From Amphibalanus amphitrite (taxonomy: Eukaryota; Arthropoda; Thecostraca; Balanomorpha; Balanidae): a DNA stretch of 64,000 nucleotides. Below, piece after piece: positions 24,414-63,300 of this stretch. The number at the start of each line of letters is the position of its first letter. The stretch's first letter is position 1. Below the pieces are notes generated by a model, which was not told where the DNA came from, did no database searches, and worked only from the letters and a program-made list of their open reading frames with translations. The stretch lies in contig NW_024883027.1 in the NCBI RefSeq assembly GCF_019059575.1, forward strand, positions 62,001-126,000, read 5' to 3'. Made by a program: the position numbers and the translations under genes.

Positions 24414-24417
24414 TTAA

Positions 24418-25437: not shown

Positions 25438-25441
25438 TTAA

Positions 25442-25909: not shown

Positions 25910-25913
25910 TTAA

Positions 25914-28929: not shown

Positions 28930-28942
28930 AGTGCATGATGCA

Positions 28943-30570: not shown

Positions 30571-30598
30571 GACAGTTACTATAGTTCGTTTTCTTTTT

Positions 30599-30935: not shown

Positions 30936-30985
30936 GACGAACTATGGCACCTATCAGCAGATATACGTTCATAATGCAACAAGGG

Positions 30986-35284: not shown

Positions 35285-35871
35285 AGTTTGCCACATTGAT
35301 TTGTGCCGTGCACAAATCAGATGGGACTCATTTTGCACGTGCGCACGTGCAGGACGACGCTTCCAGATCTCGAGAACGGCCGGGCCGATTGCACTCAAAT
35401 TCGGTACACTTCTAGAGACCGATCAGAAGGGTGCCGTGCACAAGTCAGTTAGTATGTATTTGCATGTGTCACGGTTTGATTGCAACTGCACGTGCGCACG
35501 TGCAGGGGTCGCTCCCAGATCTTAATATTGACTGGGCCTATTGAGTTCAAATTTGGTACACCGCTAGAGACCGGCGAATAGGGTCCCAACTCCCATGCAC
35601 AAGTCAATTGGACACAGCTTGCACGTGCGCACGTGCAGGATGACGCTTCCAGATCTCAAAAACGGCCGGGTCGATTGCACTCAAATTTGGCACACCGCTA
35701 GAGACCGGTTAGTAGAGTGCAGTGCACGTCAGTTCGTAGCACACCCACTCCGGTCTGCACGTGCAAGGCTCATCCTCTCGTTTGGCGGCGGGCGTTTTTG
35801 CGGCGTTACAGAGGTGCTTGCTCAAACAACCTGCGGTCCCGCGATGCGGAGCCCAGCATCGCAGATGCTGG
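35285..35871 (+). repeat. Right end of a HINE/Helentron-like element (E-box array, subterminal repeat, terminal hairpin)
   Basis: Three E-box palindrome units (near 35337, 35488, 35621) are followed by the 'ggcggcgggcgtttttgcggcg' block, CAAACAACCTGCGG at 35823-35836 (exact inverse of the left-end CCGCAGGTTGTTTG), a 7-bp-arm stem (GCGATGC/GCATCGC), and the terminal hairpin CCAGCATCGCAGATGCTGG at 35853-35871. A 30-bp unrelated spacer separates it from the next left end at 35902. No matching left end lies immediately upstream, so its left partner may be the diverged terminus at 2010. Confidence 0.65.
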
Positions 35872-35901
35872 TTTACAAATGTGATGGGTAACGGCGCAGC
35901 G

Positions 35902-37064
35902 TAACCGCAGGTTGTTTGAAAAGACAAACACTATTCGTTAGAATTGTGTTTTTCTATTGAAAAACAACCGGAGCGGTCCTTCTCCGGGCTATGTTTGGCA
36001 TGGTTGGCAGCGAATTGGGGCAACTTGATTGGGGCCTAAACGCGTCGCTCAATCTTCGTAAAAATTTCAGGGTACGGGCTCCCGGCGGTGATCTACCTGA
36101 TGGCACCGGTCGCTACTCGCTCAGAAATCTTTTGCGCGTGGCACGTGCAATTCCATTTTTCCCATAGTAAGTCAATGGGGCTTTGAGACACTTTTTGCGC
36201 GATCGCGAATGGCGGAAAAAATAGCCGTAGAAGGGGTGGTTTGGTTCCCACCGTCTCGTAGCCCACACGTTCAGGTGCACGCCCGTGTGCGCGGTGTACC
36301 CGTCAGAACTCATTAACTTGAGCTGCACGACTTTGAAGTTGAACTTTTTTCGCTCCCCATGTAAAGTCAATGGGCGTTTTTGCAGAGACATTTTCATTCG
36401 CTCATTGTACAAAATTATATGATACGATTTTGTTTAAACTTGCAGGACTTGTTGAGAACAGGTCGCAGAACATGTTGTGATGCTTCTTTAAGCTGTGCAA
36501 ATTCGTTTCTTCTTTTTAACCTCGTTTAAAAAAGAAAAAATTTAACATGGAAAGTCAATGGGAGCGTCTTTGTTGCTTAATAACTTTTTACAGTTGAGAT
36601 ATATTTAAGTGAAAAGTTGATAGGTTATACAAATTTTGATGCTCTTTCCAGTGATATATAGAACGTCATTGCACGTTGTGCCGTTTTCGAGAAATTTAGT
36701 AAAAAAGCACGACATTACCGAGATTTGAGCTCACACCTATTATGGCCTTGGCTCAGACAGTATACGAACAGGTGACAGGGATACCTCCCATAGAAGGATG
36801 CGACACGAATTTAATGCTAAATATTAGCGGCCGGCCGCCGTGGGGACGTTTTTGCACGACTTATATCTCCGCAGCCACTGGACCGATACACTTGCGGTTT
36901 TTTGTGTGGGGTAGGGTATACCCTTCTTACAAGTATTTTACTATGCACGATGCATGCGGGTGACCCCTACTGCACGTGACACGTGTACAGCGGAGAGGTG
37001 TCACTTTTGTTGTAATGACAATACCACGGTAATTCCTGAGGAGATTCTGCTGAAACTACACAAG
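35902..37064 (+). repeat. HINE-like unit, left part, split by the gypsy insertion
   Basis: Left terminus TAACCGCAGG at 35902, full left module, then 'atggccttggctcagac' at 36741. There is no 798-bp insert between these blocks, as in copy 1. The unit stops at CAAG (37061-37064), the target duplication of the retrotransposon, and resumes at 47502. Confidence 0.75.
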
Positions 37065-37714
37065 TGTAGGCGTCTATCCCCGGCCGCTGGCGTCAGAGGC
37101 AAACGCCGAACTCGGAGCCAACCAAGCGTGTATCCAGCACAAGCAGACAACAAACAAATTGAAACGCCCTAGAAAGAAAAGACAAACAACTGTCACAATC
37201 CCGACACATACAAAGCCGGCACGAAATATCAAAACCCGTTATTAGAGAATGTGAAATAAAATAAACAGTAATTATCACGAAAGTTGAAACCCACCGTTCA
37301 AGCAGGCGCAATCCAAGCACATCTCGATCCTCGCCATGTCGCGGCGCACCGAATTCCCGCTCTGGACGCGACGGGGGCTCAACGGAAATTCGGCTGCTCT
37401 CTCATTGGTCAGAATAAGCGGTTACCTGATTGGCTCTCGCGTGGCGCGCAGCTACATCATTGGACGAAATCATTACAGGAAGTCTAAAACTCTTCGGATA
37501 AGAAATATGACACATAACTAAAGAAACATTGGTACCGATCAATATCAAATAATAAAATAGTCATTACAAATCAGTATCATAACTAAATAGCACTAAACAC
37601 GCGACAACAAACCAAGGACATTATTGCAGCGCAGGACGAATTTAGAGTTGCCACTTTCACTTCTGGTAGGCCCAGTATCCGCTCGCATAACATGTAAGCG
37701 GAAATCCGCTTACA
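37065..37714 (-). repeat. 3' LTR of the gypsy element
   Basis: 650 bp, TG...CA ends. On the sense (minus) strand it begins with the palindrome TGTAAGCGGATTTCCGCTTA. Three CCAAT boxes in sense orientation (plus-strand ATTGG at 37404, 37429 and 37459) are spaced 25-30 bp apart and are plausible promoter elements. Confidence 0.93.
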
Positions 37715-37726
37715 CCCTTCCTCCCT
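37715..37726 (-). other. Polypurine tract
   Basis: AGGGAGGAAGGG on the sense strand, directly adjoining the 3' LTR. This is the expected primer for plus-strand DNA synthesis. Confidence 0.88.
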
Positions 37727-38066
37727 AACGCGAAGAAACTTCTCGATTATTTACACATACAAAACGCATCGACCTACGAACAAAGGAACTTTTTTTTTTT
37801 TTTTTTACTGGACGGCTAAACATGTTCGGTCTCAACTGAATAACTCCGTATTGCAGCTCAGCTCGTGCGCTTCTCCATTCGCTAGAGAACTACCTAGGTG
37901 CCCATTGTACAGAGGTAACACTAAGGCTCGCTTGCAGCTGTTCTTACTACGATAGGAATCTCAAGTCAAGTTATCGCCCAATGTCATTGCCTTTCACCCA
38001 GTATTAAACATTAAAAACGACAGCAGCACACAGCAGCTCTGTGTGATAGGTACCCACAACGGAAAA

Positions 38067-38337
38067 TCACGGCGAATACCTGTCGGGAGGAATGACTACT
38101 CGTGTTGACCTACGCAATTCGGGACTGCGCATATCTGCGGTAACCTGAGTGTTCGCCACGTCGGGCGGCACCTCTGCTGCTCCAGTCGGAGCTGAACCTG
38201 CTATCGGTTCTGCGACTCCCTCTGGCGTCTCACGTGTCTCACGCGCTGTCTCTGTCTGAACTGGGAGTGTCTGCGGGGCGAAAGATATGGCGAACGGATT
38301 CAGCAGGGACAGGGCCGGCGGTCCTGAGTCGTCAAGA
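38067..38337 (-). CDS. pol: C-terminal end of gypsy pol, separated by the hAT insertion
   Basis: A minus-strand frame ending near 38067 with a Pro/Glu/Ala-rich stretch and a final 'RRSTR...PPDRY' motif, typical of gypsy Pol C-termini. Reading across the insertion, the codon phase on the two sides matches once the hAT element and one copy of its 8-bp duplication are discounted, so pol was open here before the insertion. Confidence 0.8.
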
Positions 38338-39865
38338 CATAGACCCGGGAACAGGGGGGGCAGCGGGGGCGCTTGCCCCCCCAACTTGAGAGCCGAGGGG
38401 GCGGCGCCCCCTCAACATTGAGGCAGCGTGAAAGGATCTTTCCTCCCTTTTCCGGGCTTCTTTCCTTCTTATTTCCTTTATACATCTAAACATCAACACA
38501 CGGCATTTTCCTAGCCATCTGAATGGTTTCTGCTGATACAGTATCGATTTGACAACATCTACTAATTGCTATTGCCATCCCGCTTAGGTTTGGGCCTGGC
38601 CTTGGCCATAAGTTCGGCAGGCCAGATTTTATACTGGACCATTTTGAGTCAACTTTGAGAAATACATAACGTGCAACGGTGGTAAAATCGTTGTTATTAT
38701 AGGTATAACACAGTTTACCCGCTCCGGGTGTGAGGGAGGGGTGTGGGGCAATGAGTGCACTGACGTGGCGCCCTCGGAAGTCCGGTATGGGATTAAAGCT
38801 CAGCGACACTAAGGGCTTGGTGTGGTGCCTTCGGCTATCGGTAGCACCCTCAGAATCACCGGCGTAGGGCCCACAGAGCCGCCGGTAAGGGGCCTTAAGA
38901 GGCACTGGTGTGGGGCCGCCATGCAGGTGCCGGTGTGGTCGCTCAGAGGTGCTAGTGTGATTCTCTCAGAGTCGCCGGTGAGGGTCCTTACAGGCGTTGC
39001 TGTGGGCCCTTATAGACGCTGGTGTGGAGCCGTTACAGACGGATGGGGTCTTTATAGCTGATGATGCGAAGTTGCGAACCCTCTGGCCTCTACACGCCGG
39101 CAGCCGGCAGGGGGTTCTCAGTGACCGGCAAGGGGCCCTTAGGTCGGCATAAGAAGTCTTGTGGGGTCCTTTAGGACCAGCATGGTACTGTTAGACGCCA
39201 GTGGGGCCCTCAGGGCTCAGAGTCACCGGTGTGGGGCCCTCAAAATTCACCAGTGGGTGGCCTTTAGATGCGCAGGTGGTTGACTGTTGGGTCCTCAGAG
39301 CCACCGATATAGGACTTTAAAAGGCACTGGTGTAGACACTCAGAGTTGGGGGTGTGAAACGGTCAGAGATACCGGTGTGGGCCCTCATAGGCGCCGATGA
39401 GGGCCCCCACAATTGCCGTTATGGGACCCTCAGAAAAATAGGTAAGTGTTTGACAATCACAGGCGGGAAATTTCCCTAGAACTGGCCCCTCACTACCGGC
39501 CCCTCAGGCCGGTAAGAACTCTCAGAGACCAGTAACGGGCCTTTGGAGACCACCGAGGGGCCCTTAAAATCGGCAAGAGGCCCTCAGAAGCCGGCGTTGG
39601 GCCCTTATGGAGATCTAAGTGTGGTTATTTAGGGCCCATGAGGTGCTCTAACGAGCCCCATGGGGCTAGTCGAAATATGGCCATCGTTAACCCTCAGCGG
39701 TCAAATGGCGCCGCAGGGCCTCTCGGACCCGAAGGTCCCTTTGAACCCGATGGGGGGGGGGGGTACGTGTCCCCTTAGACCCCTAGCTACGCCACTGCTT
39801 CATATGCATCATGTCAGGTATTTTAGTCTCGCCCCCCCAACTTGAAAATCGTTCCCGGGCCCCTG
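38338..39865. mobile_element. hAT-type non-autonomous element, 1,528 bp, inside gypsy pol
   Basis: Flanked by the exact 8-bp duplication CGTCAAGA (38330-38337 and 39866-39873). Ends CATAGACCCGGGAAC and, in reverse complement, CAGGGGCCCGGGAAC (12 of 15 match). The interior carries no transposase. From about 38800 to 39700 it consists of degenerate ~30-bp GC-rich repeats ('ccggtgtggggccct(c/t)agag' type). Its insertion splits pol. Confidence 0.85.
38800..39700. repeat. Degenerate ~30-bp GC-rich minisatellite inside the hAT element
   Basis: Repeated phrases such as 'gccggtgtgg', 'ggggccctcagag', 'gggcccttatag' recur about every 28-32 bp with many substitutions and indels. Non-coding. Confidence 0.65.
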
Positions 39866-42800
39866 CGTCAAGACTAGCGGCGTCAGCTGGTTGGCAACTA
39901 GGCCTACCTTCACACTGCGCACCACTTACCCGCTGATTGTCACTGACACCATCCATCCTCCTTCGGCCTGTCGGAAAGGTCACGCCTGCTGCTGTCCCGA
40001 CAGCCGGCTGTGGTCTCGCGGCGGGGTCCGCCCGTGAGACGGACGCTGTCGGTGCGGTCACCGGTGACTCACCTTCTCCGGTATCCACTCGAGGCTTCAA
40101 CCTGTTGTGGTGTACGATGAGCGTAGACCTAGCTCCTTCTAGTCTGATCCTATAGTTCAGAGGACCGACCTGATCTACTACTACTGCTCTCTTCCAAGGA
40201 CGCAAAAACTTGTAATACTGACCGCGCGGAACGATTCCCTTATGCAGATACACTTTGTCTCCGGGTAGGTAACTATTCTCATTTAGCTTTCTATCATAAA
40301 TCTCCTTGTTCTTCTGATGACTTCTGTTCGAGTTCTCTAGTGCTACTTTGTGCAGAGCACGCAGATTGGTCTGCAGCCTCTCTAGATACTCCGTGATGGG
40401 TCGGGTCCTGCACCGAGTAGGACCGGCGTACTCGGCATCGGCGGGCAGCCTTGGCTCCCTGCCAAAAAGTACGCAGTACGGTGACACGCCGAGGGAGCGG
40501 TGCACCTGACTGCGGAGCCCGAGCATCAAAAGGGGCAGGTGGATGTCCCAGTCTGAGTGCTCGTGATCCTCAAGGAATTTAGACAGCATACCAAGCACAG
40601 TACGATTGATTCTTTCACAGATTGAATTACCCATCGGATGGAATGCCGTGGTATGTGACTGCTCTATCCCCAGTAACTGGCACGTGAGCTTCATAACTTC
40701 CCCGGTGAAGCAGCCACCCAAATCCGAATGGATCGTCTTTGGCACCCCATACCGAGACACAAACTCTCTGACAAACGCCTGAGCTACCTCAGTCGCCTCT
40801 TGTGTCTTCAACGGAATACACTCTACAAATCGCGAAAAATGATCGATAACTACGAGCAAGTGTCTGTGCCCCTGCGACGTCACTGGCAGGCCAGACAAAA
40901 TGTCGAGCGCTACTACCTCCATGGGCGATGAGGCTGGCAGCTGGCCCAGGGACGCTCGCGGGGCGGGAACCGGCTTGTTCCGCTCGCCGCAGCGGTGACA
41001 CGACTTACAGAACTTTTCTATATCTACAGCCATGCCGGGCCACCAGAACCTTAACCTAGCTTGAGCTAACAACTTATCACTAGCGAAATGACCTCCCGTG
41101 GGTCCGGCGTGCAGAGAAGTCAGCGCCCCTGAGATCAGACTCTTGGGCAGCACTACCTGTAGCTGATCAGAATCGCCAGGCCTTCTTCTGTACACGCGGA
41201 ACAGAACTCCGCCTACCAGTCGCAATCTGGACCACTGCGACAAGTATTTGCGACACGACTGGGGTAGATCCTTAGCTTTAGGCTTGGTTCCCGCGGAGAC
41301 GCACTTCGATATTTCCGCGATATCCTCATCCTTGTCTTGCTCCGAGCGAATGTAGCTGGTCGACCAATCGTCTGACCTTACCTGAAAGCAGTATTCAGTC
41401 TCTGGGTCCGTCTGACATGACTGATCAGTCTGCTCGTCTGGTCTGCGGGAGAGAGCGTCTGGCACTGTGTGGAGGGCGCCTGGGCGATACTCGATGGTGA
41501 AGTGGAACTGAGACAAGATCTGGAACCAGCGGGCAAACATGCCAGTCGGGTTGCGGAAATTGAGCAGCCATCGGAGACTCGCGTGATCACTCCGTACTTT
41601 AAATTCCTTACCTTCCAGGTACGCAGAAAACTTTTGCACGAAGATCACTACCGCTAGCAGTTCTTTCTGAGTGGTACCGTAATTCATCTGCGATTTTGAC
41701 AGCTTCTGACTCCCATACGCGATCACTTTCTCCACGCCACCCTGAACCTGTAGCAGCACGGCGCCCGCCTGGGTGTCAGAACTATCACAATCAAGAATAA
41801 AAGGACCTGCGTCTCGGCTGAAATCGGGCAGCGTCAGCACTGGGGCTTCACTGAGGGCTTTGCGAAGCTGGTCGAACGAGAACTGCGCCTCCTCTGACCA
41901 CTGGAACTTCACGTCTTTCTGCAACAGCTTGAAGAGCGGTGCAGAGATGCTCGCAAAATTTTTGACAAATTTGCGCATGTAACCAGCCAGCCCTAGGAAT
42001 GAGGAGAGCTGCTTGGCTGTCCGCGGAATCGGCCAGTCGCGCACTTTGCTCACACGGTCGGGGTCGAGAGACAAGCCACTCTCATCCACCACATGTCCCA
42101 AGAATTTGACACTCGAACGGAACAGGGAGCACTTTTCCAGATTGATCGTGAGACCGGCTCGGTGGAGCCTGTCTAGAACTAGCTCGAGCTTCTCAAGTGT
42201 CTCCTCGAACGTCTTACCACCCAAACAAACATCATCAAAGTAGGAATGACACGTGCCCTTGGGAAGATCGCGCAAAACAATATCGAGCATGCGGGCGCAG
42301 CTAGCCGCGGCACCATTGAGTCCCATCGGGAGCCGAAGGTGCTGCCAAGCGCCGAACGGGGTGACGATAGTCGTTTTAGGACGATCCTCTTCTCTCACAC
42401 CGATTTGAAAATAACACATGCGAAGATCAAGCACACAGAACATTGAATTTCCACCCAGGGAATCTAGAATCGTATCTATTCTGGGGACAGGATAAGCAGG
42501 CATCTTAGTCACAGCGTTAACCTTTCGGAGGTCAGCACAGATCCGGACTCGTCCATCTTTCTTTGCGACAAAGCATGCAGGACTACTCCAATATCCATTC
42601 GACTCTTCCAGAACCCCTAGATCCACCAAGCGTTGTATCTCGGCCCTTACCTTATCCTCCAGGAATGGTGGGACGCGATGGGGTGCTGAACGTATCGGCG
42701 GACTGTCACCTGTGTCGATGTGATGCTCCACCGCGGATGTGAAGCCCAACCGACCATCAAACATGTCACTATATTTGGTCAGCAGCTCGGTCACCTTCTC

Positions 42801-43829
42801 CTTCTGCTCCTTACTGAGGTCTGTGTCTGACAGGTCTATCTTTTCACGCCAATTGGGATCTGCGTCACCTGAAGGGACTGGAAACTCAGCCACGCCCACT
42901 TCCAGTCTACCGATCTCCGCACGCTTTGGGATCGTGACCGGCTCAGTTGTAATGTTTCTCACAAGGCACGGAACACTCTGACCGTTTACCTGCACCATGG
43001 AAGGAACCAACTCGAGTCCCGGGACTTCAAGCAATGGCTCGCACAGTGCTGGCCCTCTGAAGTCGACGTTTGGAACAAAACCTGGAAAGAAAACCTCGTG
43101 TCCGGCCGGAACCGCGATGTCTCTCTGACAAATCACCTTACCCACCGAGAAGACTGAAGCGGAGATGGTTCTGACCATTTTCGCAGAGCTGAGGATCAGC
43201 TGACTCTTGGTGAGATCCAGAACACACGGGCACACGCCAAAGAACTCCAATCCCAACAAAACAGTGCAGTCAATCTGATCCGAAACATAGAATGGAACCA
43301 CCACTACTTCTCCAGCAATTTTAACGGCAATCTGTGTACGACCGATCAGTGGTAGGGGGTCCCTGCTAACCGTGTGTGCCACTGTGGCCGTAGTGAAAAG
43401 GGGAGGGGCCTTGGGGAGCACATCAAAAACGGATTTGTGAATGATATTAATGCTGCTGCCGGTGTCCAGCGTCACTGAACACGTCACGCCTCCCACATCA
43501 GCGTCAAATGTCATGTCAGCATTCAAGTGGACTGTCCTCTCATCTGCTCGGGCTGCAACGACTGGGCCATCCGGGGCGGCTGCAACGGCTGCGGCCGCTG
43601 GTCCTGTGGTCTGGCATCCCACTGATGTGGACCTGGTCCCCGCTGGAACCCTGAGACTGGGGTCCGCTGCTGCTCGGGTCTGGGGTCGGGGCCGGGCCCA
43701 GCCCGCTGGGGGTTTACCTGCTGCGTGCACATCCGGGCCAAGTGTCCTTTGGTCCCACACACATGACACGGCAGGTGCCTTTGCCGACACCGCGCCTGGT
43801 TGTGACCGGGCCTCCCACAACAGAAGCAA
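39866..43829 (-). CDS. pol: Gypsy pol: protease, reverse transcriptase, RNase H, integrase
   Basis: A long open frame. Domains in order: aspartic protease with DTGSS (Asp ~122 counting from 43829), reverse transcriptase with YFDDV (~530), RNase H beginning FILDCDSS, integrase zinc finger H-x-H-x-C-x2-C (HAGPTGGH...CKSCHRC), the D,D(35)E catalytic core (LDILSG, HSDLGG with Asp ~1036, then Glu 36 residues later), and a GPY/F-like module (VGPLNYRI). No chromodomain is seen. The frame lacks its own start codon and is expected to be reached by -1 frameshifting from the nucleocapsid frame. It runs into the hAT element and meets a stop at 39783, which truncates the product; the missing C-terminus is at 38067-38337. 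Confidence 0.93.
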
Positions 43830-44502
43830 GTACGGCCGCTGCTGGACACTGGGGAGAACGAGCGCTTACCTGCGGACGCTCCAGTCGCGAGAGTTTCAAC
43901 TCCAGCTCCTGAACTTTCCGACGAAGTAGGTCTGTCTCGTCTGTGGCCGCTACCTGCCGAACCGTCTGGCTCGCTGCCACCTTCGCGGCGCACGAGAGGT
44001 TTCTCACCTTTGCCACCGCACTGTCGAACGTCTGGATGCCCTCGCCTATTAGCGCTTGTTGATATGTCGGTGGCAGTGATTGGAGGAAGTAATTGTACAG
44101 CAAGGGGTCATGATCGGTATGTCGGGTGTCGGGAAATGCGCGACTGACTAGCCCTCGAAGCTTCACCACAAAAGCATCAAGGCTGTCATCTGTTGTGAGT
44201 CTCAAAGACCGGAGCTGGACCTGTGCCTCGACTTTGTCGCCGGAGGGGAAAGCCAGTTCCAATCTCTTGCACGCGTCGCCTACCTTCTTCTTGCACTCGG
44301 TCGGGAAGGCATCGTAGGCGTCCCTCGCAATTCCGGACAAGCACAGAGGCAGCAGAGCTACTTTTTTATCGTCATCCCATCCTTGTAGGACTGCAAACGT
44401 GTCAAAGTCCGCGATGAAACGAGAGACACTGCCCTTACCGGCGAAAGACGGCAGACCGACCGATAGTGACTGCGTCGCCATGCTGAATGTCAAATTTGGC
44501 AC
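43523..44502 (-). pseudogene. gag: Gypsy gag with an internal net -1 frame change
   Basis: From Met at 44502 the frame encodes a retrotransposon Gag capsid region and a short Leu-rich heptad stretch ('LLRRKVQELELKLSRLE'). The nucleocapsid, with two CCHC knuckles (CFCCGRPGHNQARC and CHVCGTKGHLARMC), is in a different frame (43523-43993). The switch falls at about 43870-43885, and no typical slippery heptamer is there, so a one-base deletion is the simplest explanation. The nucleocapsid frame then overlaps pol by a second -1 step, where GTA-AAC-CCC at about 43711 is a candidate shift site. Confidence 0.8.
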
Positions 44503-45230
44503 ACTTCCAACGGAAAAAAAAAATCGGTGATGTAAGGGGAACCGCAGAGTCGTTAATACGGAGAGTAATTCAACAAGTTACGCTAAAATTAAATGCTCAA
44601 ATTACTGCGAGAAAGGCGATGGAAAGGACGTTTTACAATGGAAAAAGAAATCGTAGAGCCAGCATTACCTCGTTACAGTGAGACCGCAACACTTTACCAG
44701 CAACCAACATCACACCTTCCCAAACCAAGCACATACATGACACACAGTATCAATGAAACACCCTTGTCACCACTCATATCCCCAACCACCAAATGTTTAT
44801 GTCCACGTCAGCCCAGTTTGGCACACCTCAGCTTCAAATGTCCACGTGCGTCTTCATAAGGGGGGGGGGGGGAAGGGTAGTGCGCGCATTGTCACCGGAG
44901 AATACCACGCACGGCGTCCTCGGCAGGGGGGGGGGAGCACCTGAGTCTCCGGGGGGTCAGAAGGTGCTCGTGTCCGCAACAGGGGGGAGTGCACTCGTCC
45001 CAGTCTCCATCGGGAGTGGCCGGTAGTCCTCGGACCGCGAGGCAGGATTACCCGCTCCAACAATGGTCAAAGGGCGATCGCTTAGATCGGGTGACACAAA
45101 CGTTCAGGCACATCCCGCTATCGGATTCAGGCACATCCCGCTATCGGATAAGTCCGAACTGGATAGGTCTCACCGGCGTGTAGACGCTGAGCAGTCAGCT
45201 GTCGCGCTCGGAGAATCTTATACTGACGCC
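44503..45230 (-). other. Leader (5' untranslated) region of the gypsy element, gag-proximal part
   Basis: Between the gag start and the nested TIR element. It contains G runs near 44858 and 44926 and sequence such as 'gctcggagaatc' and 'gacgccagat' that is repeated on the far side of the nested element (46768-46795). No coding frame of note. Confidence 0.5.
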
Positions 45231-45234
45231 AGAT

Positions 45235-46753
45235 CAGTAGGCGGAACTATGGTCATGAGTACCCAAATATAGGAACGTTCCCATTTTTGGGAACGGAGTT
45301 CCCAAATATGGGAACGGGCGTTCCCATTTATGAGAACGGAAGGCAATTTTTCGGCCGTTCGCCCACTAAAACTCAAAAGTGCATCACGTCTCAAAAAAGT
45401 GCACGCTGATTTAAGTATCTACTAAATCTCCATAAAGTTATCTTTAATCTGACCGTGGAACAAGGAAATTGACCGTGGAATGATATTTTTAATGATTTTT
45501 TAAAGATGACAGAATGGTGGAAATATGGGTTATACGACATTTAACATGCAATTTTAAGGAAAATGAAGCATTTTTTAGTTTGAGGTAAAGTATAATAATT
45601 TTCGCCTGGTTATGAACTTTCATACTATCGACACCAGATGCTGACATATGCAAGCGAACACGCGGACAGTCCCGAGGTAATATTGTTGACATTTGGTGTC
45701 GAGGCGGACGACCGCGTAGAACGTGCGTGATTTTACCGAACTACTGTTGTAAACTCAGTTTAAGTGGTCGAAAATTATTCAGCTGTATTTTATCAGCCCG
45801 GAAAGACATATTTTATTTGGATGCTAGCTGTTTAGCATTATTTTATAAGGAGCGTCATGAGCGTGGTTTTTGTCTTCCGTGTTTCTAAGCATGATCGTTT
45901 TGGGGGAATTTCTCTTATATAGGTCGCTCTGGGTGGCTTATTTATAATTTCTATGCTGATTTCGATCATTCCTCGTGCCCATCCTACCAGGCCTTTTGTC
46001 ACTTACACTCATTAAGAAATGAAAAACTAGACTTTCATTGGGACTAGGTGTTTTGAGGGTGTAACATATTCAGCGTTCCCATTTTTGGATACTTTCTTGT
46101 ACTCGTCAACTATCGGTGATAAACAGACAGGTGCTTGACATGTCTCCACCCTCGGCACGGACGGTGGATATAGGTATGGAAGACCTTGTTGAACATCGCT
46201 GAGCGTTGTGAATTACGTAAACCTGCAGAGGGGGGCGTGCCCGCTGCGAGATCGACGGGAATAAAAGCGCAGAAGACCGGGCGAAACATGCGACGGTCTT
46301 GCCGGAAAGGTCATCTGATGATTGTTGCGTTAACAATAATTTGCGGCGTTGGACGTGATGCTTGTTAATGAAAAGAGCCCCTGAAAGGCGTCGGTGAAAT
46401 CGTTCCCAATTATGGGTACGCCGTTCCCATAATAAGGAACGCTTGCAGCGCCAGTGTACGAGAGCGTTCCCAAATTTGGGCTGGCGGCCCGGATGATGGA
46501 CTGCTTTAGAAATAGGGGAACGATTTGAAACTACGATGGGCCTTACAATATCAAACTCTTTCCCAACAATATTGCGACAAATATCAGGCGGTTCACGATC
46601 GTTTTCTATTTTTTGGACGTCATTTAACGGTTCTTTTTCTTGTTTTAAATAATGCCTACATGGCGTTCCCATATTTGGGTTTATCGTTCCCAAACATGGG
46701 AACGAAAATGCGTTCCCGAAAATGGGTACGCTTGACCATAGTTCCGCCTACTG
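45235..46753. mobile_element. Unclassified TIR element, 1,519 bp, with arrays of GTTCCC...GGGAAC palindromes
   Basis: Both ends begin CAGTAGGCGGAACTATGG and pair over 31 bp with two mismatches. Flanks are AGAT (45231-45234 and 46754-46757), a 4-bp duplication. About ten copies of the inverted motif GTTCCC-n6-GGGAAC, many ~24 bp apart, cluster just inside both ends (45274-45335, 46395-46480, 46660-46730). The ~1-kb A/T-rich middle has no transposase. Superfamily not recognised. It sits in the gypsy leader. Confidence 0.82.
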
Positions 46754-46831
46754 AGATGTAGGCCGTCGCGCTCGGAGAATCCTACTGACGCCAGATGCAG
46801 GCCGTCAAGCTTAGGCCGTCGAGCTCAGAGC

Positions 46832-46849
46832 ATCCCACCGCTGCCACCA
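46832..46849 (-). other. Primer-binding site, tRNA-Leu type
   Basis: The plus strand reads ATCCCACCGCTGCCACCA, identical to the 3' end of an animal tRNA-Leu including CCA. The sense strand is therefore complementary to that tRNA. It starts 2 nt inside the 5' LTR, the normal position. Confidence 0.9.
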
Positions 46850-46851
46850 GA

Positions 46852-52386: not shown

Positions 52387-55063
52387 TAACCGCAGGTTGT
52401 TTGAAAAGACAAACACTATTCGTTAGAATTGTGTTTTTCTATTGAAAAACAACCGGAGCGGTCCGTCTCCGGGCTATGTTTTGCAAGTCTGGCCGCGAAT
52501 TGGGGCAACTTGGGTCAGGCCTAAACTTGTGGCTCGATTTTCTTAAAAATTTCAGTGTATGGGCTCCCGCAGGCGATCTACCTGTTGGCACCGGTCGCTA
52601 CTCGCTTAAAACCTCGTGGCACGTGGCACGTGCGATTCCATTTTCCCCATGTTAAGTCAACGGGGTTTTGGACACTTTTTGCGCAATCGCGAATAGCGGG
52701 AAAACGAGCCAAGGAAGAGGTGGTTTTCTTCCCAGCATTTTATGGCAAACACGTTCAGGTACACGCTAGTGTGCGCCGTATACCCCTCAGAACTTCGTAA
52801 CGTGTCTTTGCACGAGGTCAAAGTTGAACTTTTTTCGCTCCCCATGTTAAGTCAATGGGCGTTTTTGCAGAGACTTTTTCATTCGCTCATTGTACAAAAT
52901 TATATGATACGATTTTGTTTAAACTTTCAGGACTTGTTGAGAAAAGACCATAGAACATGTTGTTATGCTTCTTTAAGCTGTGCAAATTCGTTTGTTGTCT
53001 TTAGGCTTCTTTAAAAATGAAAAATTTTAACATGGAAAGTCAATGGGAGCGTCTTTGGTGCTTAATAACTTTGTACCTTGAAGACATATTCAAGTGAAAA
53101 GTTGATATTTTATACAACTTTTGATGCTCTTTCCAATGATATATACAACTTTATTGCACGTGGTGCCGTTTTTGAGAAATATAGTAAAAAAGCACGACAT
53201 TACCGAGATTTGAGCTCAGACCTATATCGTTACGGTGTCAGGCGGACACGAGGACAGGTGGCGCCGCCGCCGCCCGCATAGCGGCGGGAATGTGAACTAA
53301 CCTGTTTACCATCTATGGTATGGTACCATCGGGGGACCGGCCGCCGTCGGCACCATTTCGGGACTTTGCATCGCAATAAAAGGCTTATTTACAATTGAAA
53401 ATGGACTAGCGAGAGTCGTTATGGAATCAGAATTTGATGCTGTACAAAACTAGGCGCCTATTTTCATTGTGATGGCATCACAGACTACACCGCTAACCCC
53501 AATAAAGCAGATTTATGTCGCGTCATCGATGATTACATATAATGTTTCTTTGATATATATGTAGTCGGGTCTTTCAGCTGCGTTCCTCCCCTCCCTCGCC
53601 GCGCCGGCGGGTCGGCCATCCGCGCCCTGCCGCCCGCCGGCTGCTGGCCGGTCAGCTGGCCGGTCAGCTGGTCGCCCGCGGCTGTCGGTGCAGTGCGGGA
53701 TGCCTACTTGCGGGGGGCCGTCGTGGCGGCGGCCCGGGTGGACTGGGCGAGCAGTGAGTTGGGGAGCGCTGCGCTGTCGGTGCTCTAGTTTGCATTGCGT
53801 TCGCATGATACGGCTTGAGCCAATACAGAGTGAACTGATTGAGCTGAGCAAGTCTTTATATACATTGAAAAGTAAAGCACTTTTTACTGCATCTACGGTG
53901 AGATGCTAGATAAAATTTATGGTCTACCTAATGGTACCCATTACTTAACAATTAAGTGAATCATTTCGTCGCTAAACTCTCGTAAATTCGTATGTCCGCC
54001 TCACTATGGAGTTTGGACCGTAACGTATGGTCTTTGCTCAGACAGTATACGAACAGGTGACGGGGATACCTCCCATAGAAGGATGCGACACGATTTTACT
54101 GCTAAATAGCGGCCGGCCGCCGTGGGGACGTTTTTGTACGACTTATATCTCGGCAACCACTGGGCTGATACACGTGCGGTTTTTTGTGTTGGGTAGCTTT
54201 TTTCCTTCTTTCACATAGTGTGCTACTCTCGATGCATATGGGTGACCCCTAACGCACGTTCCACGTGCAAAGCCAAGAGGTGCCTGTTTTGTAATAAGTG
54301 CAATAGCTCGCGGTAATTACTGGGCCGATTGCGCTAAAACTTGGCATGGAGGTAGACACATTCCAGGCGATGCATTTCCACGTGTCTTGGTAGGGGTGCA
54401 ACTGCACGTGCGCACGGGCAGGGTGACGCTTCCAGATGTCGAGAACGGCTGGGCCGATTGTGATCAAACTTGGCACACCGCTAGAGGCTGGTAAGTAGGG
54501 TGCCGTGCACAAGTCAGATGGGACCCGCTATGCACGTGCGCACGTGCAGGCTGACGCTTCCAGATCTCAAGAACGGCTGGGCCGACTCTGCTGAAATTTG
54601 GCATACCGCTAGAGACTGGTTAGTAGGGTGCCGTGCACAAGTCAGTTAGTATGTATTTTCATGTGCCACGGTTGGGGTGCAGTTGCACCAGCGCACGTGT
54701 AGGGGTCGCTTCCAGATCTTGAAATTGACGGGGCTGATTGAGCTCCAATTTGGTACACCGCTAGAAACCGGCGAATAGAGTGCCGTGCACAAGTCAATTG
54801 GGGCCTAGGCTGCACGTGCGCACGTGCAGGGTGTCGCTTCCAGATCTCGAAAACGACCGGGTCGATTGCACTCAAATTTGGCACACCGCTATAGACCGGC
54901 GAATAGGGTGCAGTGCACGTCAGTCCGTAGCACACCGACTCCGGTCTGCACGTGCAAGGCTCATTCTCTCGTTTGGTGGCGGGCGTTTTTGCTGCGTTTA
55001 CAAAGGTGCTTGCTCAAACAACCTGCGGTCCCGCGATGCGGAGCCCGGCATCGCAGATGCCGG
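52387..55063 (+). repeat. Complete HINE-like unit carrying a 798-bp insert
   Basis: Left terminus at 52387, left module, 798-bp TIR insert (53228-54025), 'ctttgctcagacag' block, E-box palindrome units (about 54403-54815), CAAACAACCTGCGG at 55015-55028 and terminal hairpin CCGGCATCGCAGATGCCGG at 55045-55063. Without the insert the unit is about 1.9 kb. The next unit starts at 55064. Confidence 0.78.
53228..54025. mobile_element. 798-bp TIR insertion in a HINE-like unit, copy 1
   Basis: Begins CGTTACGGTGTCAGGCGGAC and ends '...ccgcctcactatggagtttggACCGTAACG'. The ends pair as CGTTACGGT, with a second pairing block G(A)GGCGGACA. Units at about 1045 and 36740 lack it, which defines the insertion site ('acctat...tatggcc'). 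The target is TA-rich and duplicates at most 1-3 bp. No coding frame. Related copies: 55906-58727 and 61167-63348, each with further insertions. Confidence 0.7.
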
Positions 55064-55987
55064 TAACCGCAGGTTGTTTGAAAAGACAAACACTATTCGT
55101 TAGAATTGTGTTTTTCTATTGAAAAACAACCGGAGCGGTCCTTCTCCGGGCTATGTTTTGCATGTCTGGCCGCGAATTGGGGCAACTTGGGTCAGGCCTA
55201 AACTTGTGGCTCGATTTTCTTAAAAATTTCAGTGTATGGGCTCCCGGAGGCGATCTACCTGATGGCACCGGTCGCTACTCGCTTAAAACCTCGTGGCACG
55301 TGGCACGTGCGATTCCATTTTTCCCATAGTAAGTCAATGGGGGTTTGGGACACTTTTTGCGCAATCGCGAATAGCGGGAAAACGAGCCAAGGAAGGGGTG
55401 GTTTTCATCCCAGCATTTTATGGCAAACACGTTTGGGTACACGCTAGTGTGCGCCGTATACCCCTCAGAACTTCGTAACGTGTCTTTGCACGAGGTCAAA
55501 GTTGAACTTTTTTCGCTCCCCATGTTAAGTCAATGGGCGTTTTTGCAGAGACTTTTTCATTCGCTCATTGTACAAAATTATATGATACGATTTTGTTTAA
55601 ACTTTCAGGACTTGTTGAGAAAAGACCATAGAACATGTTGTTATGCTTCTTTAAGCTGTGCAAATTCGTTTGTTCTTTTTAGGCTCGTTTAAAAATGAAA
55701 AATTTTAACATGGAAAGTGAATGGGAGCGTCTTTGCTGCTTAATAACTTTTTACAGTTGAGATATATTTAAGTGAAAAGTTGATAGGTTATACAACTTTT
55801 GATGCTCTTTCCAATGATATATACAACTTTATTGCACGTGGTGCCGTTTTTGAGAAATATAGTAAAAAAGCACGACATTACCGAGATTTGAGCTCAGACC
55901 TATATCGTTACGGTGTCAGGCGGACACGAGGACAGGTGGCGCCGCCGCCGCCCGCATAGCGGCGGGAATGTGAACTAACCTGTTTAC

Positions 55988-56241
55988 CAGAGGGGTGTTC
56001 ACGGGCACCGCACACTGCTGCGTGCGCTGTGTGCGGTGCGTCCAGCAGGCGTGGGGGTAGGGGATGGGTAGGCGGTTCTGACGTCACGGCTGCGTGCGGT
56101 GGACGGTCCGCTGTGGCCAGTCCCGACCGGCCACAGCGATCGCTGTGTGCGGTGACGGAAGGCTGACGTAGGGACGCAGTGGGCGGAGCTTGGAGGCTAT
56201 GTGCGGTCCGACCGCACACAGGGCCCGTGAACAGCCCTCTG
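55988..56241. mobile_element. GC-rich TIR insertion, 254 bp, without target duplication
   Basis: Ends CAGAGGGGTGTTCACGGGC and, in reverse complement, CAGAGGGCTGTTCACGGGC (one mismatch in 19). The uninterrupted paralogs read 'cctgtttaccatctatgg'; here the flanks are 'cctgtttac' and 'atctatgg', so no bases are duplicated and one may be lost. Internal hairpins include GCTGTGGCC/GGCCACAGC and TGTGCGGTC/GACCGCACA. The ends look hAT-like but the missing 8-bp duplication does not fit. Confidence 0.75.
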
Positions 56242-56670
56242 ATCTATGGTATGGTACCATCGGGGGACCGGCCGCCGTCGGCACCATTTCGGGACTTTGC
56301 ATCGCAATAAAAGGCTTATTTACAATTGAAAATGGACTAGCGAGAGTCGTTATGGAATCAGAATGTGATGCTCTACAAAACTAGGCTATTTTCATTGTGA
56401 TGGCATCACAGACTACACCGCTAAACCCAATAAAGCAGATTTATGTCGCGTCATCGATGATTACATATAATGTATCATTCTTTGATATATATGTAGTCGG
56501 GTCTTTCAGCTGCGTCCCTCCCCTCCCTCGCCGCGCCGGCGGGTCGGCCATCCGTGGCTTGCCGCCCGCCGGCTGCTGGCCGGTCAGCTGGCCGGTCAGC
56601 TGGTCGCCCGCGGCTGTCGGTGCAGTGCGGGATGCCTACTTGCGGGGGGGGGGGGGCCGTCGTGGCGGCG

Positions 56671-58428
56671 CACACTGGTCGGAAACGCTCCAGCGAGAGG
56701 CCAGCGGCCTTTCCGCAAACGTTTTTTGCTTGTTATTCCACAACTAGTGAAGCAAACTTCATAAAACTTTGCATACCTTCTCTGTCATATGTAAGCTATC
56801 ATTTGGATGTCAAGCACTAAATATATGACGTGAATCTGTTAAGTTATGACGTCATAATTGAGTATAATACAGGATCTAGCACCACTTTAAGTCAACAAGG
56901 GAAATTGGGAGCTGCTATTCGGGCACCGGGAATGGTTTCATGCACTCCTTGCAAGGTCCAGTGCTTCACTTTAGCATTGTTGACTTTGCGTGACGTCATT
57001 TATGACGTCACTAAGGCCATATAAGTTTTTCGTCAATAACTCCTGATCAAATGGAGCTAGAGAGTCGGGAAAGCCACCATTGGACTCAGGAAGACCTGCC
57101 GAATCGAATGATATGCGATATGACCTCCTTCAACCATTTTCATGACCTGAGGGGCTCCGACCTGACCTTGACCCGAGGTTAACACCTAAGTTGACTTCAC
57201 CCGAACACCAAGTATAGCATTCAACGCGCCTGAGCTAGAAAAACACGATGATGCCAAAATCGCGGCAGTGCGACCATTTTTGGCAAAGTAATTAACCTAA
57301 AACTGAGCCCGTCCCTTGTGGCACTTACCTGACCTAAGAGGCCACTGGCTGACCTAAGACCTTAAAATCGGGTAGTACCTAATTGTTGCGTCTTATAACG
57401 GCACACAAGCTCGTTTTTTCCGCGAGGCTCTAGCTCAATTATAAGAGGCGAAACGGCGAGGAAGTTGTACCAACCCTCCCCGGTCAATATAGAAAACCAA
57501 TCGGTCCGGCCAGGGTTAAATACCGGAATTGTGATCTAATGTAAAAAGACGGCCCAAGGTAACCCGACGTCAGTGACAGGTGTCCTATATTTGCAGCGTC
57601 TTATATTCACGAAGGTTTCAATTTCCAATTTCTTCAGCCGAGTGATGGCTGTCAATAGCAAGGCTCTTTAAATGCAAGCCGAAATCGCCACGCAACATGT
57701 GGAAGGCTTTTGATGTCAATGCATACATAAATGCATACATAAAACGCGCTTTTCACAAAATTCATAAACTCAAGCGCATCTGTTTTTAATGACCAGTCAA
57801 CTACGCATGGATGCGTGCAGGCCACACAGGTCAGCGTAAGCCGGGCGCGGCGGCCGAGCCGAAACTGGGGCGGGGCGGGCGGTACTTGGGTAGGAAGAGC
57901 GGCTCCTGCAAATTTTGCGCAAATATGCGCAGTTAGCTTTTATGTTGCCCTGGTGTAAATTTAAATCCTGCTTCATCTCACAAAAAATCAGAGTGGAACT
58001 AGATGGGACTACCTGTTGTTTCCTTACCTAAACTTTGCAGTTATATTCCAAAATCACTGTAGGAGAGCCGTCATAAAAAAGCTACAGTAAATCTTAGTTA
58101 GGGGAAAAGTATACCAAAAATTTTGCACTGACCAGTCGGCAACTTCATAACGAACATTTTGATGCATAATATGTGGGATTTCAATTTGGTGTCTATCAGC
58201 AATAAGACTCTGAATATCCGGCTCAAGAAACCTCTTGCTCCGCGTCAGTTTCCGAGTTCTGGGATACCCCATCTTCGGGGGCTGATTACAGTTATTTTTG
58301 GTCACCCGGATTAGTTTTTTTGGCCTAAGTATAATAATTTGATCAATTTCAAATCGATCTATATAAAAAATAATCCGAAACTCCGGAATCGCCCGTGGCC
58401 TCTCGTGAGGGCGTTTCCGACCAGTGTG
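56671..58428. mobile_element. Transib-like non-autonomous element, 1,758 bp, 5-bp GC target duplication
   Basis: Both ends begin CACACTGGTCGGAAACGC and pair, with gaps, through CGAGAGGCCA. Flanks are CGGCG (56666-56670 and 58429-58433); the uninterrupted paralog at about 53707 has a single copy. A 5-bp GC-rich duplication and an end resembling the RSS/Transib heptamer (CACWRTG type) suggest the Transib/RAG superfamily. EnSpm (CACTA) is less likely, since it duplicates 3 bp. No transposase frame. The interior includes a TTAA-type segment (to about 57515) homologous to 3900-4640 and 7940-8030. Confidence 0.72.
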
Positions 58429-59911
58429 CGGCGGCCCGGGTGGACTGGGCGAGCAGTGAGTTGGGGAGCGCTGCGCTGTCGGTGCTCTAGTTTGTATTGC
58501 GTTCGCATGATACGGCTTGAGCCAATACAGAGTGAACTGATTGAGCTGAGCAAGTCTTTACATACATTGAAAAGTAAAGCACTTTTTACTGCATCTACGG
58601 TGAGATGCTAGATAAAATTTATGGTCTACCTAATGGTACCCATTACTTAACAATTAAGTGAATCATTTCGTCGCTAAACTCTCGTAAATTCGTATGTCCG
58701 CCTCACTATGGAGTTTGGACCGTAACGTATGGCCTTTGCTCAGACAGTATACGAACAGGTGACGGGGATACCTCTAATAGAAGGATGCGACACGATTTTA
58801 CTGCTAAATAGCGGCCGGCCGCCGTGGGGACGTTTTTGTACGACTTATATCTCGGCAACCACTGGGCTGATACACGTGCGGTTTTTTTTGTGTGGGGTAG
58901 CTTTTTCCCTTCTTTCACATAGTGTGCTACTCTCGATGCATATGGGTGACCCCTAACGCACGTTCCACGTGCAAAGCCAAGAGGTGCCTGTTTTGTAATA
59001 AGCGCAATAGCTCGCGGTAATTACTGGGCCGATTGCGCTAAAACTTGGCATGGAGGTAGACACTTTCCAGGCGATGCATTTCCATGTGTCTTGGTAGGGG
59101 TGCAACTGCACGTGCGCACGTGCAGGGTGACGCTTCCAGATCTCGAGAACGGCTGGACCGATTGTGTTCAAATTTGGCATAACGCTTGATACCGATCAGT
59201 AGGTTGCAGTCATTTAGTATGTATTTCCATGTGCCACGATTGGGGTGCAACTGCACGTGCGCACGTGCAGGGTGACGCTTCCAGATCTCGAGAACGGCCG
59301 GGCCGATTGAGTTCAAATTTGGTACACCGCTAGAGACCGATTAGTAGGGTGCCGTGCGCAAGTCAGTTTGGACCCATCTTGCACGTGCGCACGTGCAGGG
59401 TGACGCTTCCAGATCTCAAGAACGGCTGGACCGATTGCACTCAAATTCGGCAAACAGCTAGAGATCGATCAGTAGGGTGCCGTGCACAAGTCAGTTAGTA
59501 TGTATTTCCATGTGTCACGGTTGAGATGCAACTGCACGTGCGCACGTGGAGGGGTCGTTTCAAGATCTTGAAAACGGCTGGGCCGATTGAGCTCGAATTT
59601 GGTACACCGCTAGGGACCGGCGAATAGGGTCCCATGCACAATGCAATTGGACACAGCTTGCACGTGCGCACGTGCAGGGTGTCGCTTCCAGATATCGAAA
59701 ACGGTCGGGTCGATTGCACTCAAATTTGGCACACCGCTATAGACCGGCGAATAGGGTGCCGTGCACGTCAGTCCGTAGCACACCGACTCCGGTCTGCACG
59801 TGCAAGGCTCATCCTCTCGTTTGGCGGCGGGCGTTTTTGCTGCGTTTACAAAGGTGCTTGCTCAAACAACCTGCGGTCCCGCGATGCGCAGCCCAGCATC
59901 GCAGATGCTGG

Positions 59912-60325
59912 TAACCGCAGGTTGTTTGAAAAGACAAACACTATTCGTTAGAATTGTGTTTTTCTATTGAAAAACAACCGGAGCGGTCGTTCTCCGGGCT
60001 ATGTTTTGCAAGTCTGGCAGCGAATCGAGACATCTTGATTGGGGCCTAGACGAAATGTACAATCTTCGTAAAAAGTTCAGTGTATAGGCTCCCGGAGGCG
60101 ATCTACCTTATGGCATCGGTCGCTACTCGCTTAAAACCTCGTGGCACGTGGCACGTGCGATTCCATTTTCCCCGTGTTAAGTGAACGGGGTTTTGGACAC
60201 TTTTTGCGCGATCGCCAATAGCGGGAAAACGAGCCAAGGAAGAGGTGGTTTTCTTCCCAGCATTTTATGGCAAACACGTTTGGGTACACGCTAGTGTGCG
60301 CTGTATACCCCTCAGAATCTCGGAA
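59912..60325 (+). repeat. HINE-like unit, truncated left module
   Basis: Left terminus directly after the hairpin at 59911. The module breaks off after 'cccctcagaatctcggaa' at 60325, where another left terminus begins. Confidence 0.7.
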
Positions 60326-63300
60326 TAACCGCAGGTTGTTTGAAAAGACAAACACTATTCGTTAGAATTGTGTTTTTCTATTGAAAAACAACCGGAGCGG
60401 TCCTTCTCCGGGCTATGTTTTGCAAGTCTGGCCGCGAATTGGGGCAACTTGGGTCAGGCCTAAACGAATCGCTCAATCTTCGTAAAAATTTCAGGGTATG
60501 GGCTCCCGGAGGCGATCTACCTGATGGCACCGGTCGCTACTCGCTTAAAACCTCGTGGCACGTGGCACGTGCGATTCCATTTTCCCCATGTTAAGTCAAC
60601 GGGGTTTTGGACACTTTTTGCGCGATCGCCAATAGCGGGAAAACGAGCCAAGAAAGAGGTGGTTTTCTTCCACGCATGTTATGGCAAACACGTTTGGGTA
60701 CACGCTAGTGTGCGCCGTATAGCCCTCAGAACTTCGTAACGTGTCTTTGCACGAGGTCAAAGTTGAACTTTTTTCGCTCCCCATGTTAAGTCAATGGGCG
60801 TTTTTGCAGAGAGTTTTTCATTCGCTCATTGTACAAAATTATATGATACGATTTTGTTTAAACTTTCAGGACTTGTTGAGAAAAGACCATAGAACATGTT
60901 GTTATGCTTCGTTAAGCTGTCAGAATTCGTTTGTTCTTTTTGAGCTCGTTTAAAGAAGATTTTTTTTAACATGCAAAGTCAATGGGAGCGTCTTTGCTGC
61001 TTTATAACTTTTTACGTTATAGATATATTTCAGTGAAAAGTTGATAGGTTATACAACTTTTGATGCTCTTTCCAATGATACATACAACTTTATTGCACGT
61101 GGTGCCGTTTTTGAGAAATATAGTAAAAAAGCACGACATTACCGAGATTTGAGCTCAGACCTATATCGTTACGGTGTCAGGCGGACACGAGGACAGGTGG
61201 CGCCGCCGCCGCCCGCATAGCGGCGGGAATGTGAACTAACCTGTTTACCATCTATGGTATGGTATGGTACCATCGGGGGACCGGCCGCCGTCGGCACCAT
61301 TTCGGGACTTTGCATCGCAATAAAAGGCTTATTTACAATTGAAAATGGACTAGCGAGAGTCGTTATGGAATCAGAATTTGATGCTCTACAAAACTTGGCT
61401 ATTTTCATTGTGATGGCATCACAGACTACACCGCTAACCCCAATAAAGCAGATTTATGTCGCGTCATCGATGATTACATATAATGTTTCTTTGATATATA
61501 TGTAGTCGGGTCTTTCAGCTGCGTCCCTCCCCTCCCTCGCCGCGCCGGCGGGTCGGCCATCCGCGGCTTGCCGCCCGCCGGCTGCTGGCCGGTCAAGTGG
61601 CCGGTCAGCTGGTCGCCCGCGGCTGTCGGTGCAGTGCGGGATGCCTACTTGCGGGGGGCCGTCGTGGCGGCGGCCCGGGTGGACTGGGCGAGCAGTGAGT
61701 TGGGGAGCGCTGCGCTGTCGGTGCTCTAGTTTGTATTGCGTTCGCATGATACGGCTTGAGCCAATACAGAGTGAACTGATTGAGCTGAGCAAGTCTTTAT
61801 ATATGTTACAGGCCGTATGAAAACTCAGTCCGTTTGCAAAAGGCCTGGCCCGATTCAGGCCGTTTGCAAACGGCCTGGACAGCCCAGTCAGTATGCAAAC
61901 GGTCTGAAAAGTCAGGCCGTTTGAATACGGGCTGAAATTCCAGGCTGTATGCAAACCACCTGAAATTTCAGGCCGTTTGGAAACCGTCTAGACCGTATGA
62001 CAACTTTCCAGACACCAGGCCGTTTGCAAACGGTCTAGGCATTTTGAAAACAATCTGGTCTGCATGAAGCTATAGCTGGACAATGTTGAGTTTGTTGAAG
62101 CACGACCGTTAATGATATTACATGGCACCATGAAATCCTGAGGTGCATTCGGCATCCCGAAAAATATTGTCACTAGGATATTATCCGTCGGAAAATTATT
62201 GGTGAGCGCCTATCTTCAGCATGTCTCGTTATCGCGATACCGTTCGTGATCCCCGATAATTCTCGCTAGTCCCGGATAATTCTCCGTGATTTTTCCGGAT
62301 GCCGAATGCAGGCCTGGTCAGTAAGAGATAAGCAGAACTGAGGCCCGGCCCGTACAGCGCCCGGGCCCTGTTTCACCGTCACGACGCTGCGCGCGCTGGA
62401 AGCTACGGTATACCAGCGGCGTGTTAGGTTTCCGTGGAAATATAACAATCTCGGACGCCTCGCAATGCTGAAGCGTCGAGCCGAATTCGTCTCGAACGCC
62501 CACGAACGCCGCACCAGCGCGCGCGCCGTCCGGGTGGTGAAACAGGGCCCCGGTCGACCCGGGCTTCCCCCGGACTTAAAGTTTCGCCTTCCACCGCAAT
62601 GGTCAAGTATTGCCGGCGTACGCCACCGGCCAGCCGCCGGCGGTCGACCGGGCGCGGTGAGGACTCTAATGTGAACTCTGATGTCCATTGTGCGTTCCTG
62701 CGTTTTATGCCGCAAAATAATCGGTGAGTCTTGTAGTGATACGTTTCACCAGACTTCACCAGTAGCGGCTTCACCAGGCTCCATGAACTGGATGGCCGTA
62801 AGCAGGCGGACCGTGAACTTGTATAATTAGTAATATTGTCGGAAAACGGCCGGGTCGAGCATCTGCACAGTAAGAAAATGTTCGACGTAGACGAGTCATT
62901 CGGCATGGAATGCGCAAGCATTGACATGGATGCAACCTGATCATCGACCAACCTGGATCCATTAAGTTATCTTCAGAGGCTGTTGTACTTCGCCAGACCG
63001 TTTGAAAACTGACTAGGCCGTTTTCAAACTGTCTAGGCCGTTTCAAACTGCCTAGGCCGTTTTCATACGGCCTGATATTTCAGGCGGTTTGCAAACGGCC
63101 GGCTTTTTCAGGCCGTTTTCAAACGGCCTAACTGGGCCAGGCCGTTTGCAAACGGACTGGGTTTTCATACGGTCTGTAACATATACATTGAAAAGTAAAG
63201 CACTTTTTACTGCATCTACGGTGAGATGCTAGATAAAATTTATGGTCTACCTAATGGTACCCATTACTTAACAATTAAGTGAATCATTTCGTCGCTAAAC

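What the first reader, a model, noticed from the sequence alone, without database searches (positions are those of the whole stretch)
35823..60342. HINE/Helentron-like composite unit with defined ends
Nine left termini TAACCGCAGGTTGTTT(G) (203, 2010, 35902, 48353, 51589, 52387, 55064, 59912, 60326) follow varied flanks, and five right ends carry the exact inverse CAAACAACCTGCGG plus a terminal hairpin. Three right ends are followed immediately by a left end. Subterminal inverted repeats, internal tandem repeats, a 3' hairpin, no target duplication and head-to-tail copies are hallmarks of Helentron-associated HINE elements (DINE-1 and bivalve Pearl types).
Basis: partly seen in the sequence, partly recalled or inferred. 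Interest (0 to 1): 0.75.

Follow-up and report, generated by a model that had tools for sequence, protein, structure and literature searches.

The report
Self-piling rolling-circle transposon arrays
The window holds a family of rolling-circle DNA transposons, one very large gene-carrying copy and many short gene-less ones, stacked head to tail on one strand, apparently because new copies tend to join at or near the ends of older ones.

Summary
The genome holds 3417 exact LE 17-mers, 1790 exact RE 18-mers and 904 exact RE|LE joins. Subterminal inverted repeats, end hairpins, central repeats and no visible target duplication fit a HINE-like element of the Helitron2/Helentron group. The likely autonomous partner is 2010-35871 (33.9 kb; a 3167-aa OTU + PIF1-helicase frame). 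Its RE tail follows the same 3' block on 19 other contigs, three of which also carry the frame; its LE link rests on three close copies. Two textbook features failed: no endonuclease domain found, and insertion before a T, often G|TA, rather than inside TT. LEs outnumber REs 1.9:1. Of listed neighbours under 20 kb apart, 162 of 164 pairs share strand. Neighbours are hardly more alike than other copies. Truncation points are enriched near resident ends. This fits repeated top-strand joining of incoming LEs to resident ends better than single concatemers; the mechanism is inferred. Tandem Helitrons with many 5' and single 3' ends are published for plants.

The parts
1..202 (+). 3' part of an older copy, broken off at GTCAGTCCG|; its remainder is probably 48218-48352
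203..2009 (+). Copy with intact LE, ending at GGCGGCGGG| about 80 bp before its RE would end
2010..35871 (+). Likely autonomous element, 33,862 bp, with other repeats nested inside; LE subtype ..GTTTCTTCAT; RE as in the short copies
13067..22570 (+). Open frame of 3167 aa: OTU protease (aa 63-168), PIF1-like helicase (aa 2431-2569); HUH-like PHIHRH (aa 1718) and YALKY (aa 1993) read by eye
35823..35871 (+). RE: subterminal inverted repeat, 35 bp, terminal hairpin; followed by TTTACAAATG
35902..48217 (+). Copy from LE to RE, interrupted by an LTR retrotransposon (37065-47502)
48218..48352 (+). 135-bp RE piece right after an RE: remainder of the copy at 1-202, or a local duplication of the RE end
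48353..49138 (+). LE piece joined directly to an RE, then unrelated DNA to 51588
51589..52386 (+). LE piece of 798 bp ending TTTAG|, followed by the next LE (uninterrupted copies read TTTAG|TAAA, 33 of 33)
52387..55063 (+). Complete short (HINE-like) copy, 2677 bp, RE with the G-C hairpin variant
55064..59911 (+). Complete copy joined directly to the previous RE, carrying two nested repeats with inverted ends (about 55988-56241 and 56669-58430)
59912..60325 (+). LE piece of 414 bp joined directly to an RE and followed by the next LE
60326..64000 (+). Copy with intact LE, running past the window to C1530:126082 where the next LE begins; nested repeat at 61804-63180

Best explanation
A Helitron2/Helentron-group rolling-circle family: a large autonomous element (2010-35871 here) and many short HINE-like copies with the same ends. 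Shown: precise LE, terminal RE hairpin, no target duplication beyond one ambiguous T at four nested sites, shared RE, one-strand arrays, excess of LEs. Inferred: the element's Rep protein nicks the top strand of resident copies at or near their ends, and an incoming LE is joined to that 3'-OH. If copying reaches the RE a whole unit is added; if it stops early an LE-only piece is left. Repetition builds same-strand head-to-tail stacks. Identity about 0.9; this array mechanism about 0.45.
For: Anatomy. Shared RE. RE|LE joins: 904 genome-wide; 38 of 56 REs in fetched stretches followed by an LE within 0-1 base. One strand: 162 of 164 listed neighbour pairs under 20 kb; each fetched array stretch has LEs on one strand only. 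Incoming copies are not copies of the neighbour: adjacent pairs 0.914 alike versus 0.907 in the same cluster and 0.892 between clusters. Cut points: base before is G in 29 of 49, TA follows in 12 of 49 against 4% expected. Near-end enrichment in five regions not picked for close LEs: 7 of 32 within 200 bp of an LE (2.4 expected), 8 of 32 within 150 bp of an RE (1.8 expected). Top-strand-only cleavage is reported for the Helraiser Helitron transposase (PMC5876387, passages).
Against: The Rep domain is by eye only; Pfam and PDB sequence searches do not confirm it. In 25 of 49 cut points the next base is not T. A test for linkage of 5' and 3' types was negative both within units and across joins. 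Some local amplification is present (identical pair C7:1989368/1989552; duplicated LE flanks on C9, C7, C6). No transposition or nick was observed; no empty allele in host DNA was found. Two of the eight near-RE points (window 2010 and C6:2308950) are almost the same junction.
Confidence: 0.45

Rival explanations
1. Circles of the transposon, complete or ended early, enter resident copies by homologous recombination; homology fixes the orientation and the circle brings the RE|LE join.
For: Same strand, RE|LE joins, shuffled 5' and 3' types; circles with joined ends are reported for Helraiser and for a Fusarium Helitron2-type element (PMC5876387, PMC5148889, passages).
Against: LE pieces of 18-58 bp would need very small circles; it does not by itself give REs followed by the matching remainder.
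Confidence: 0.3
2. One-event rolling-circle concatemers, or later unequal crossing-over, made the arrays.
For: Many 5' ends per 3' end, as described for plant Helitrons (PMC12628747 passages on Xiong et al. 2016); regular 2055-bp RE spacing on C9; duplicated LE flanks.
Against: Neighbours are hardly more alike than others and joins unite different LE subtypes (0.78 alike, C6:2305300 and 2307162); cut points differ from unit to unit.
Confidence: 0.15
3. Plain nested insertion at preferred G|T(A) sites on either strand, followed by loss of the remainders.
For: Four nested sites fit exactly; TA preference.
Against: Orientation is not random; few REs are followed by a remainder while LE-only joins are many; cut points lie close to the RE, where little remains to recombine away.
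Confidence: 0.1

Closest known systems
HINE / DINE-1 elements (PMC4067079, passages read)
   Same: Subterminal inverted repeats near both ends, 5' inverted repeat, 3' stem-loop, central repeats, no coding capacity, no target duplication, clusters
   Different: TT or T-rich targets there; here N|T, often G|TA. Hairpin lies at the very end here, 8-35 bp inside in the mite HINEs
Helentrons and Helitron2 (PMC4067079, PMC5148889, PMC6431247, passages read)
   Same: Large protein with helicase, OTU domain known in animal Helentrons, asymmetric inverted repeats, hairpins at both ends
   Different: No AP-endonuclease domain found; element of 33.9 kb with nested repeats; LE link to the frame seen in three close copies only
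Crassostrea gigas Cg_HINE (PMC7492417, passages read)
   Same: Satellite-like central repeats, no target duplication; the paper notes inner tandem copies are often 3'-truncated
   Different: TT preference there, and no autonomous partner could be linked there
Plant centromeric Helitron arrays (Xiong et al. 2016, not read; seen through PMC12628747 passages)
   Same: Many 5' ends and a single 3' end per array
   Different: Explained there by rolling-circle copying of templates that lost the 3' end; here cut points differ from unit to unit and neighbours are not closest kin
Drosophila TE dimers (McGurk and Barbash, not read; seen through PMC12628747 passages)
   Same: Tandem copies attributed mainly to insertion site preference
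   Different: Here strand is fixed and the family is of rolling-circle type

Membership tests
HINE | 12-15 bp subterminal inverted repeats, 2-4 nt from the 5' end and 38-60 nt from the 3' end | tested here: met
   14 bp, 3 nt from the 5' end and 35 nt from the 3' end, slightly outside the published range
HINE | Palindrome near the 3' end | tested here: met
   8-bp stem ending at the last base; third pair A-T 39, G-C 13, G-T 5 of 57; outermost pair lost in 9 of 57
HINE | No target duplication | tested here: met
   Four nested sites fit with at most one ambiguous T; no empty allele in host DNA found
HINE | Insertion inside TT / T-rich DNA | tested here: not met
   RE followed by T in 14 of 16 (10 directly, 4 after one G), TT in 3; base before the cut is G in 29 of 49
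HINE | Ends shared with an autonomous Rep/helicase element | tested here: met
   RE tail with the 3' block on 19 other contigs, 3 with the frame; LE in window and twice on C764; no LE within 8.3 kb upstream of the frame on C482 and C264
Helentron (strict) | AP endonuclease fused to Rep/helicase | tested here: not met
   No such Pfam hit up to E 10, though HMMER filters drop most weak hits
Helitron / Helentron | HUH Rep nuclease with two tyrosines | tested here: inconclusive
   Motifs by eye; no Pfam or PDB sequence support; structure job unfinished
Helitron / Helentron | PIF1-like helicase | tested here: met
   PIF1 7.7e-6, AAA_19 4.5e-11
Helitron2 / Helentron | Hairpins at both ends | tested here: met
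   LE z -4.1 and -6.4, RE z about -2.3 against shuffles
Helitron2 / Helentron | Phylogenetic placement of Rep/helicase | not tested
   No reference Rep/helicase sequences were at hand

The most novel reading that the evidence does not exclude
The transposase uses nicked ends of resident family members as its preferred landing site, on one strand only, so the family seeds and extends its own satellite-like arrays and leaves LE-only scars whenever copying aborts.
Probability: 0.35. Interest if true: 0.65.

Novelty: new variant of a known kind. Interest (0 to 1): 0.45.

Why it matters
The genome keeps a large record of rolling-circle transposition: thousands of precise 5' ends, variable stops and a fixed strand, next to dozens of near-identical uninterrupted copies of the enzyme gene. 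How Helitron-type elements form head-to-tail arrays, and how satellites arise from them, becomes testable on natural data.

Tried and rejected
Rejected: a TA target duplication (the REs at window 35871 and C1:84347 are followed by TT). Rejected for LE pieces of 180 bp or more: copying of the neighbour's own 5' end, because neighbours are rarely closest kin. Led nowhere: phage and viral collections; empty-site searches for C1:1529146-1537184 (the left flank is a many-copy repeat, the right flank does not continue it) and C5:738596-741629 (single copy); linkage test. A first script timed out. The structure prediction was unfinished at the last look. Caveats: stretches L029-L048 were chosen partly because LEs lay close together, so (15 of 47 within 200 bp of an LE, 10 of 47 within 150 bp of an RE) is biased; one search leaves them out. 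Dropped before counts: 3 LEs on C6 (2320019, 2349354, 2357823) that the script cut to one base (117 of 120 LEs kept); 26 distinct flanks that did not map and 12; one poor RE hit (C1:1626905). Replicate stretches on C29 and C19 were chosen later from the RE list: 8 LEs, 2 of them RE|LE joins, 1 unmapped, 4 of the 5 mapped cut points near an end.

Full report
What is there. The window is C1530:62001-126000 of an unnamed assembly of 807,550,619 bases. A solo copy at C1:81663-84347 sits in TTAGG repeats, which I recall as the arthropod telomere motif; the species was not identified.

Anatomy. A 14-bp subterminal repeat lies 3 bp from the 5' end and 35 bp from the 3' end. The RE ends in a hairpin with an 8-bp stem. 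Over 57 REs its third pair is A-T 39, G-C 13, G-T 5; the outermost pair is lost in 9. The LE folds into a long imperfect hairpin in the two copies tested (z -4.1 and -6.4). Repeats of about 128 bp fill the 3' half.

The partner. The frame 13067-22570 has OTU and PIF1-like helicase domains and motifs that I read as HUH and two-tyrosine; Pfam and PDB sequence searches do not confirm a Rep domain and show no endonuclease. For a 1000-aa part, 46 genome matches were scored of 201 candidates, 96-100% identical, none with a stop in the matched part. DNA 3' of the frame is colinear in other copies. The RE tail follows the same 3' block on 19 other contigs, 18 to the last base; three of them (C78, C282, C482) also carry the frame on the same strand upstream. 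Four further rows stop inside the tail (C264, C2079, C1175, a second C282 copy). Eight of eight fetched tails end at the same base, five followed by an LE and three by other DNA starting with T. The LE of 2010 lies upstream of the frame in the window and twice on C764; on C482 and C264 the 8.3 kb upstream of the frame held no recognisable LE. The RE is well supported, the LE moderately.

Arrangement. Exact LE 17-mers number 3417, RE 18-mers 1790, RE|LE joins 904. Of 56 REs in fetched stretches, 38 are followed by an LE within 0-1 base and 2 after 12-13 bases. Of the other 16, 10 are followed by T, 4 by G then T (all GCCGC-type ends), and 2, with one shared flank, by GCTT. In five regions bases 21-70 occur in 79 copies, the LE in 77, the RE tail in 43; probes in between vary with divergence. 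So 5' ends stay and 3' ends are lost.

Nested sites. Four blocks fit exactly into a resident copy: window 203/48217 (48 kb, itself an array; the 135-bp remainder could also be a duplication), C6 2295044/2311235, C6 2333351/2336027 (remainder only 12 bases before another LE), and C19 1636415/1639989. Two more (window 2010/35871, C1 1531785/1534723) lack roughly 10-13 bp on the left by my reading. Host-flank empty sites were not found.

Orientation. Of consecutive places within 20 kb, LEs share strand in 85 of 85 pairs and REs in 77 of 79 (first 100 places of each list, and the two lists overlap in loci).

Relatedness. Over 93 units of at least 180 bp, 46 adjacent pairs are 0.914 alike on average, 658 other pairs in the same cluster 0.907, and 3574 pairs between stretches 0.892. 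One adjacent pair is identical. Single-event concatemers are thus disfavoured for the bulk, while local amplification exists. Neither within units nor across joins are 5' and 3' types linked, so copies recombine.

Where copies are cut. For 49 distinct LE flanks with uninterrupted homologues, T follows in 24 (31% expected, p 0.005), TA in 12 (4% expected, p 4e-7), and G precedes in 29; 25 of 49 do not obey N|T. In five regions not picked for close LEs (77 LEs, 29 RE|LE joins, 32 mapped distinct cut points, 12 unmapped) 7 cut points lie within 200 bp of an LE (p 0.008) and 8 within 150 bp of an RE (p 0.0003); two of the 8 are nearly one junction.

Reading. A precise LE, a variable stop, one strand and enrichment at resident ends fit top-strand joining of incoming LEs to nicked resident ends. 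Recombination of circles explains much of this, less well the LE pieces of 18-58 bp. Both are inference.

Known or new. HINE and Helentron anatomy, OTU domains, and tandem 3'-truncated Helitrons are in print (PMC4067079, PMC5148889, PMC6431247, PMC7492417, PMC12628747, PMC5876387; passages only). My searches listed nothing on one-strand, end-directed piling in this group; most subscription papers are not in that library, and I read only passages of six papers.

Noticed in passing
37065-47502: LTR retrotransposon on the minus strand with two identical 651-bp LTRs, nested in the copy 35902-48217; its pol frame gives reverse transcriptase, RNase H and integrase hits.
   Followed up: partly
56669-58430; 55988-56241; 61804-63180: Three nested repeats with inverted ends (20 of 20 and 18 of 20 matching end bases for the first two; TGTTACAG ends for the third), inside copies of the family.
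   Followed up: partly
8848-10801, 23460-24074, 49735-50698: Tandem repeats of about 980, 107 and 485 bp, of unknown origin.
   Followed up: no
L036 (C9:68501-69500), L029 (C7:1980301-1984200), C6:2344450-2344610: Stuttered LEs in which the short flank before the LE is repeated together with it, as if flank and LE were copied again.
   Followed up: partly
L026 (C1:78001-88000): A solo copy inserted in TTAGG repeats without visible duplication.
   Followed up: no
window 2010; C6:2305300; C6:2308950: The same truncation join (GGCGG[CT]GGG before the ..CTTCAT LE) at three places, and a similar order of blocks on C295, C95, C526, C165, C104, C444, C1512, C553 and C764, so a composite seems to have spread.
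   Followed up: partly
C16:250164-265858: Pairs of REs 120 bp apart, three times.
   Followed up: no
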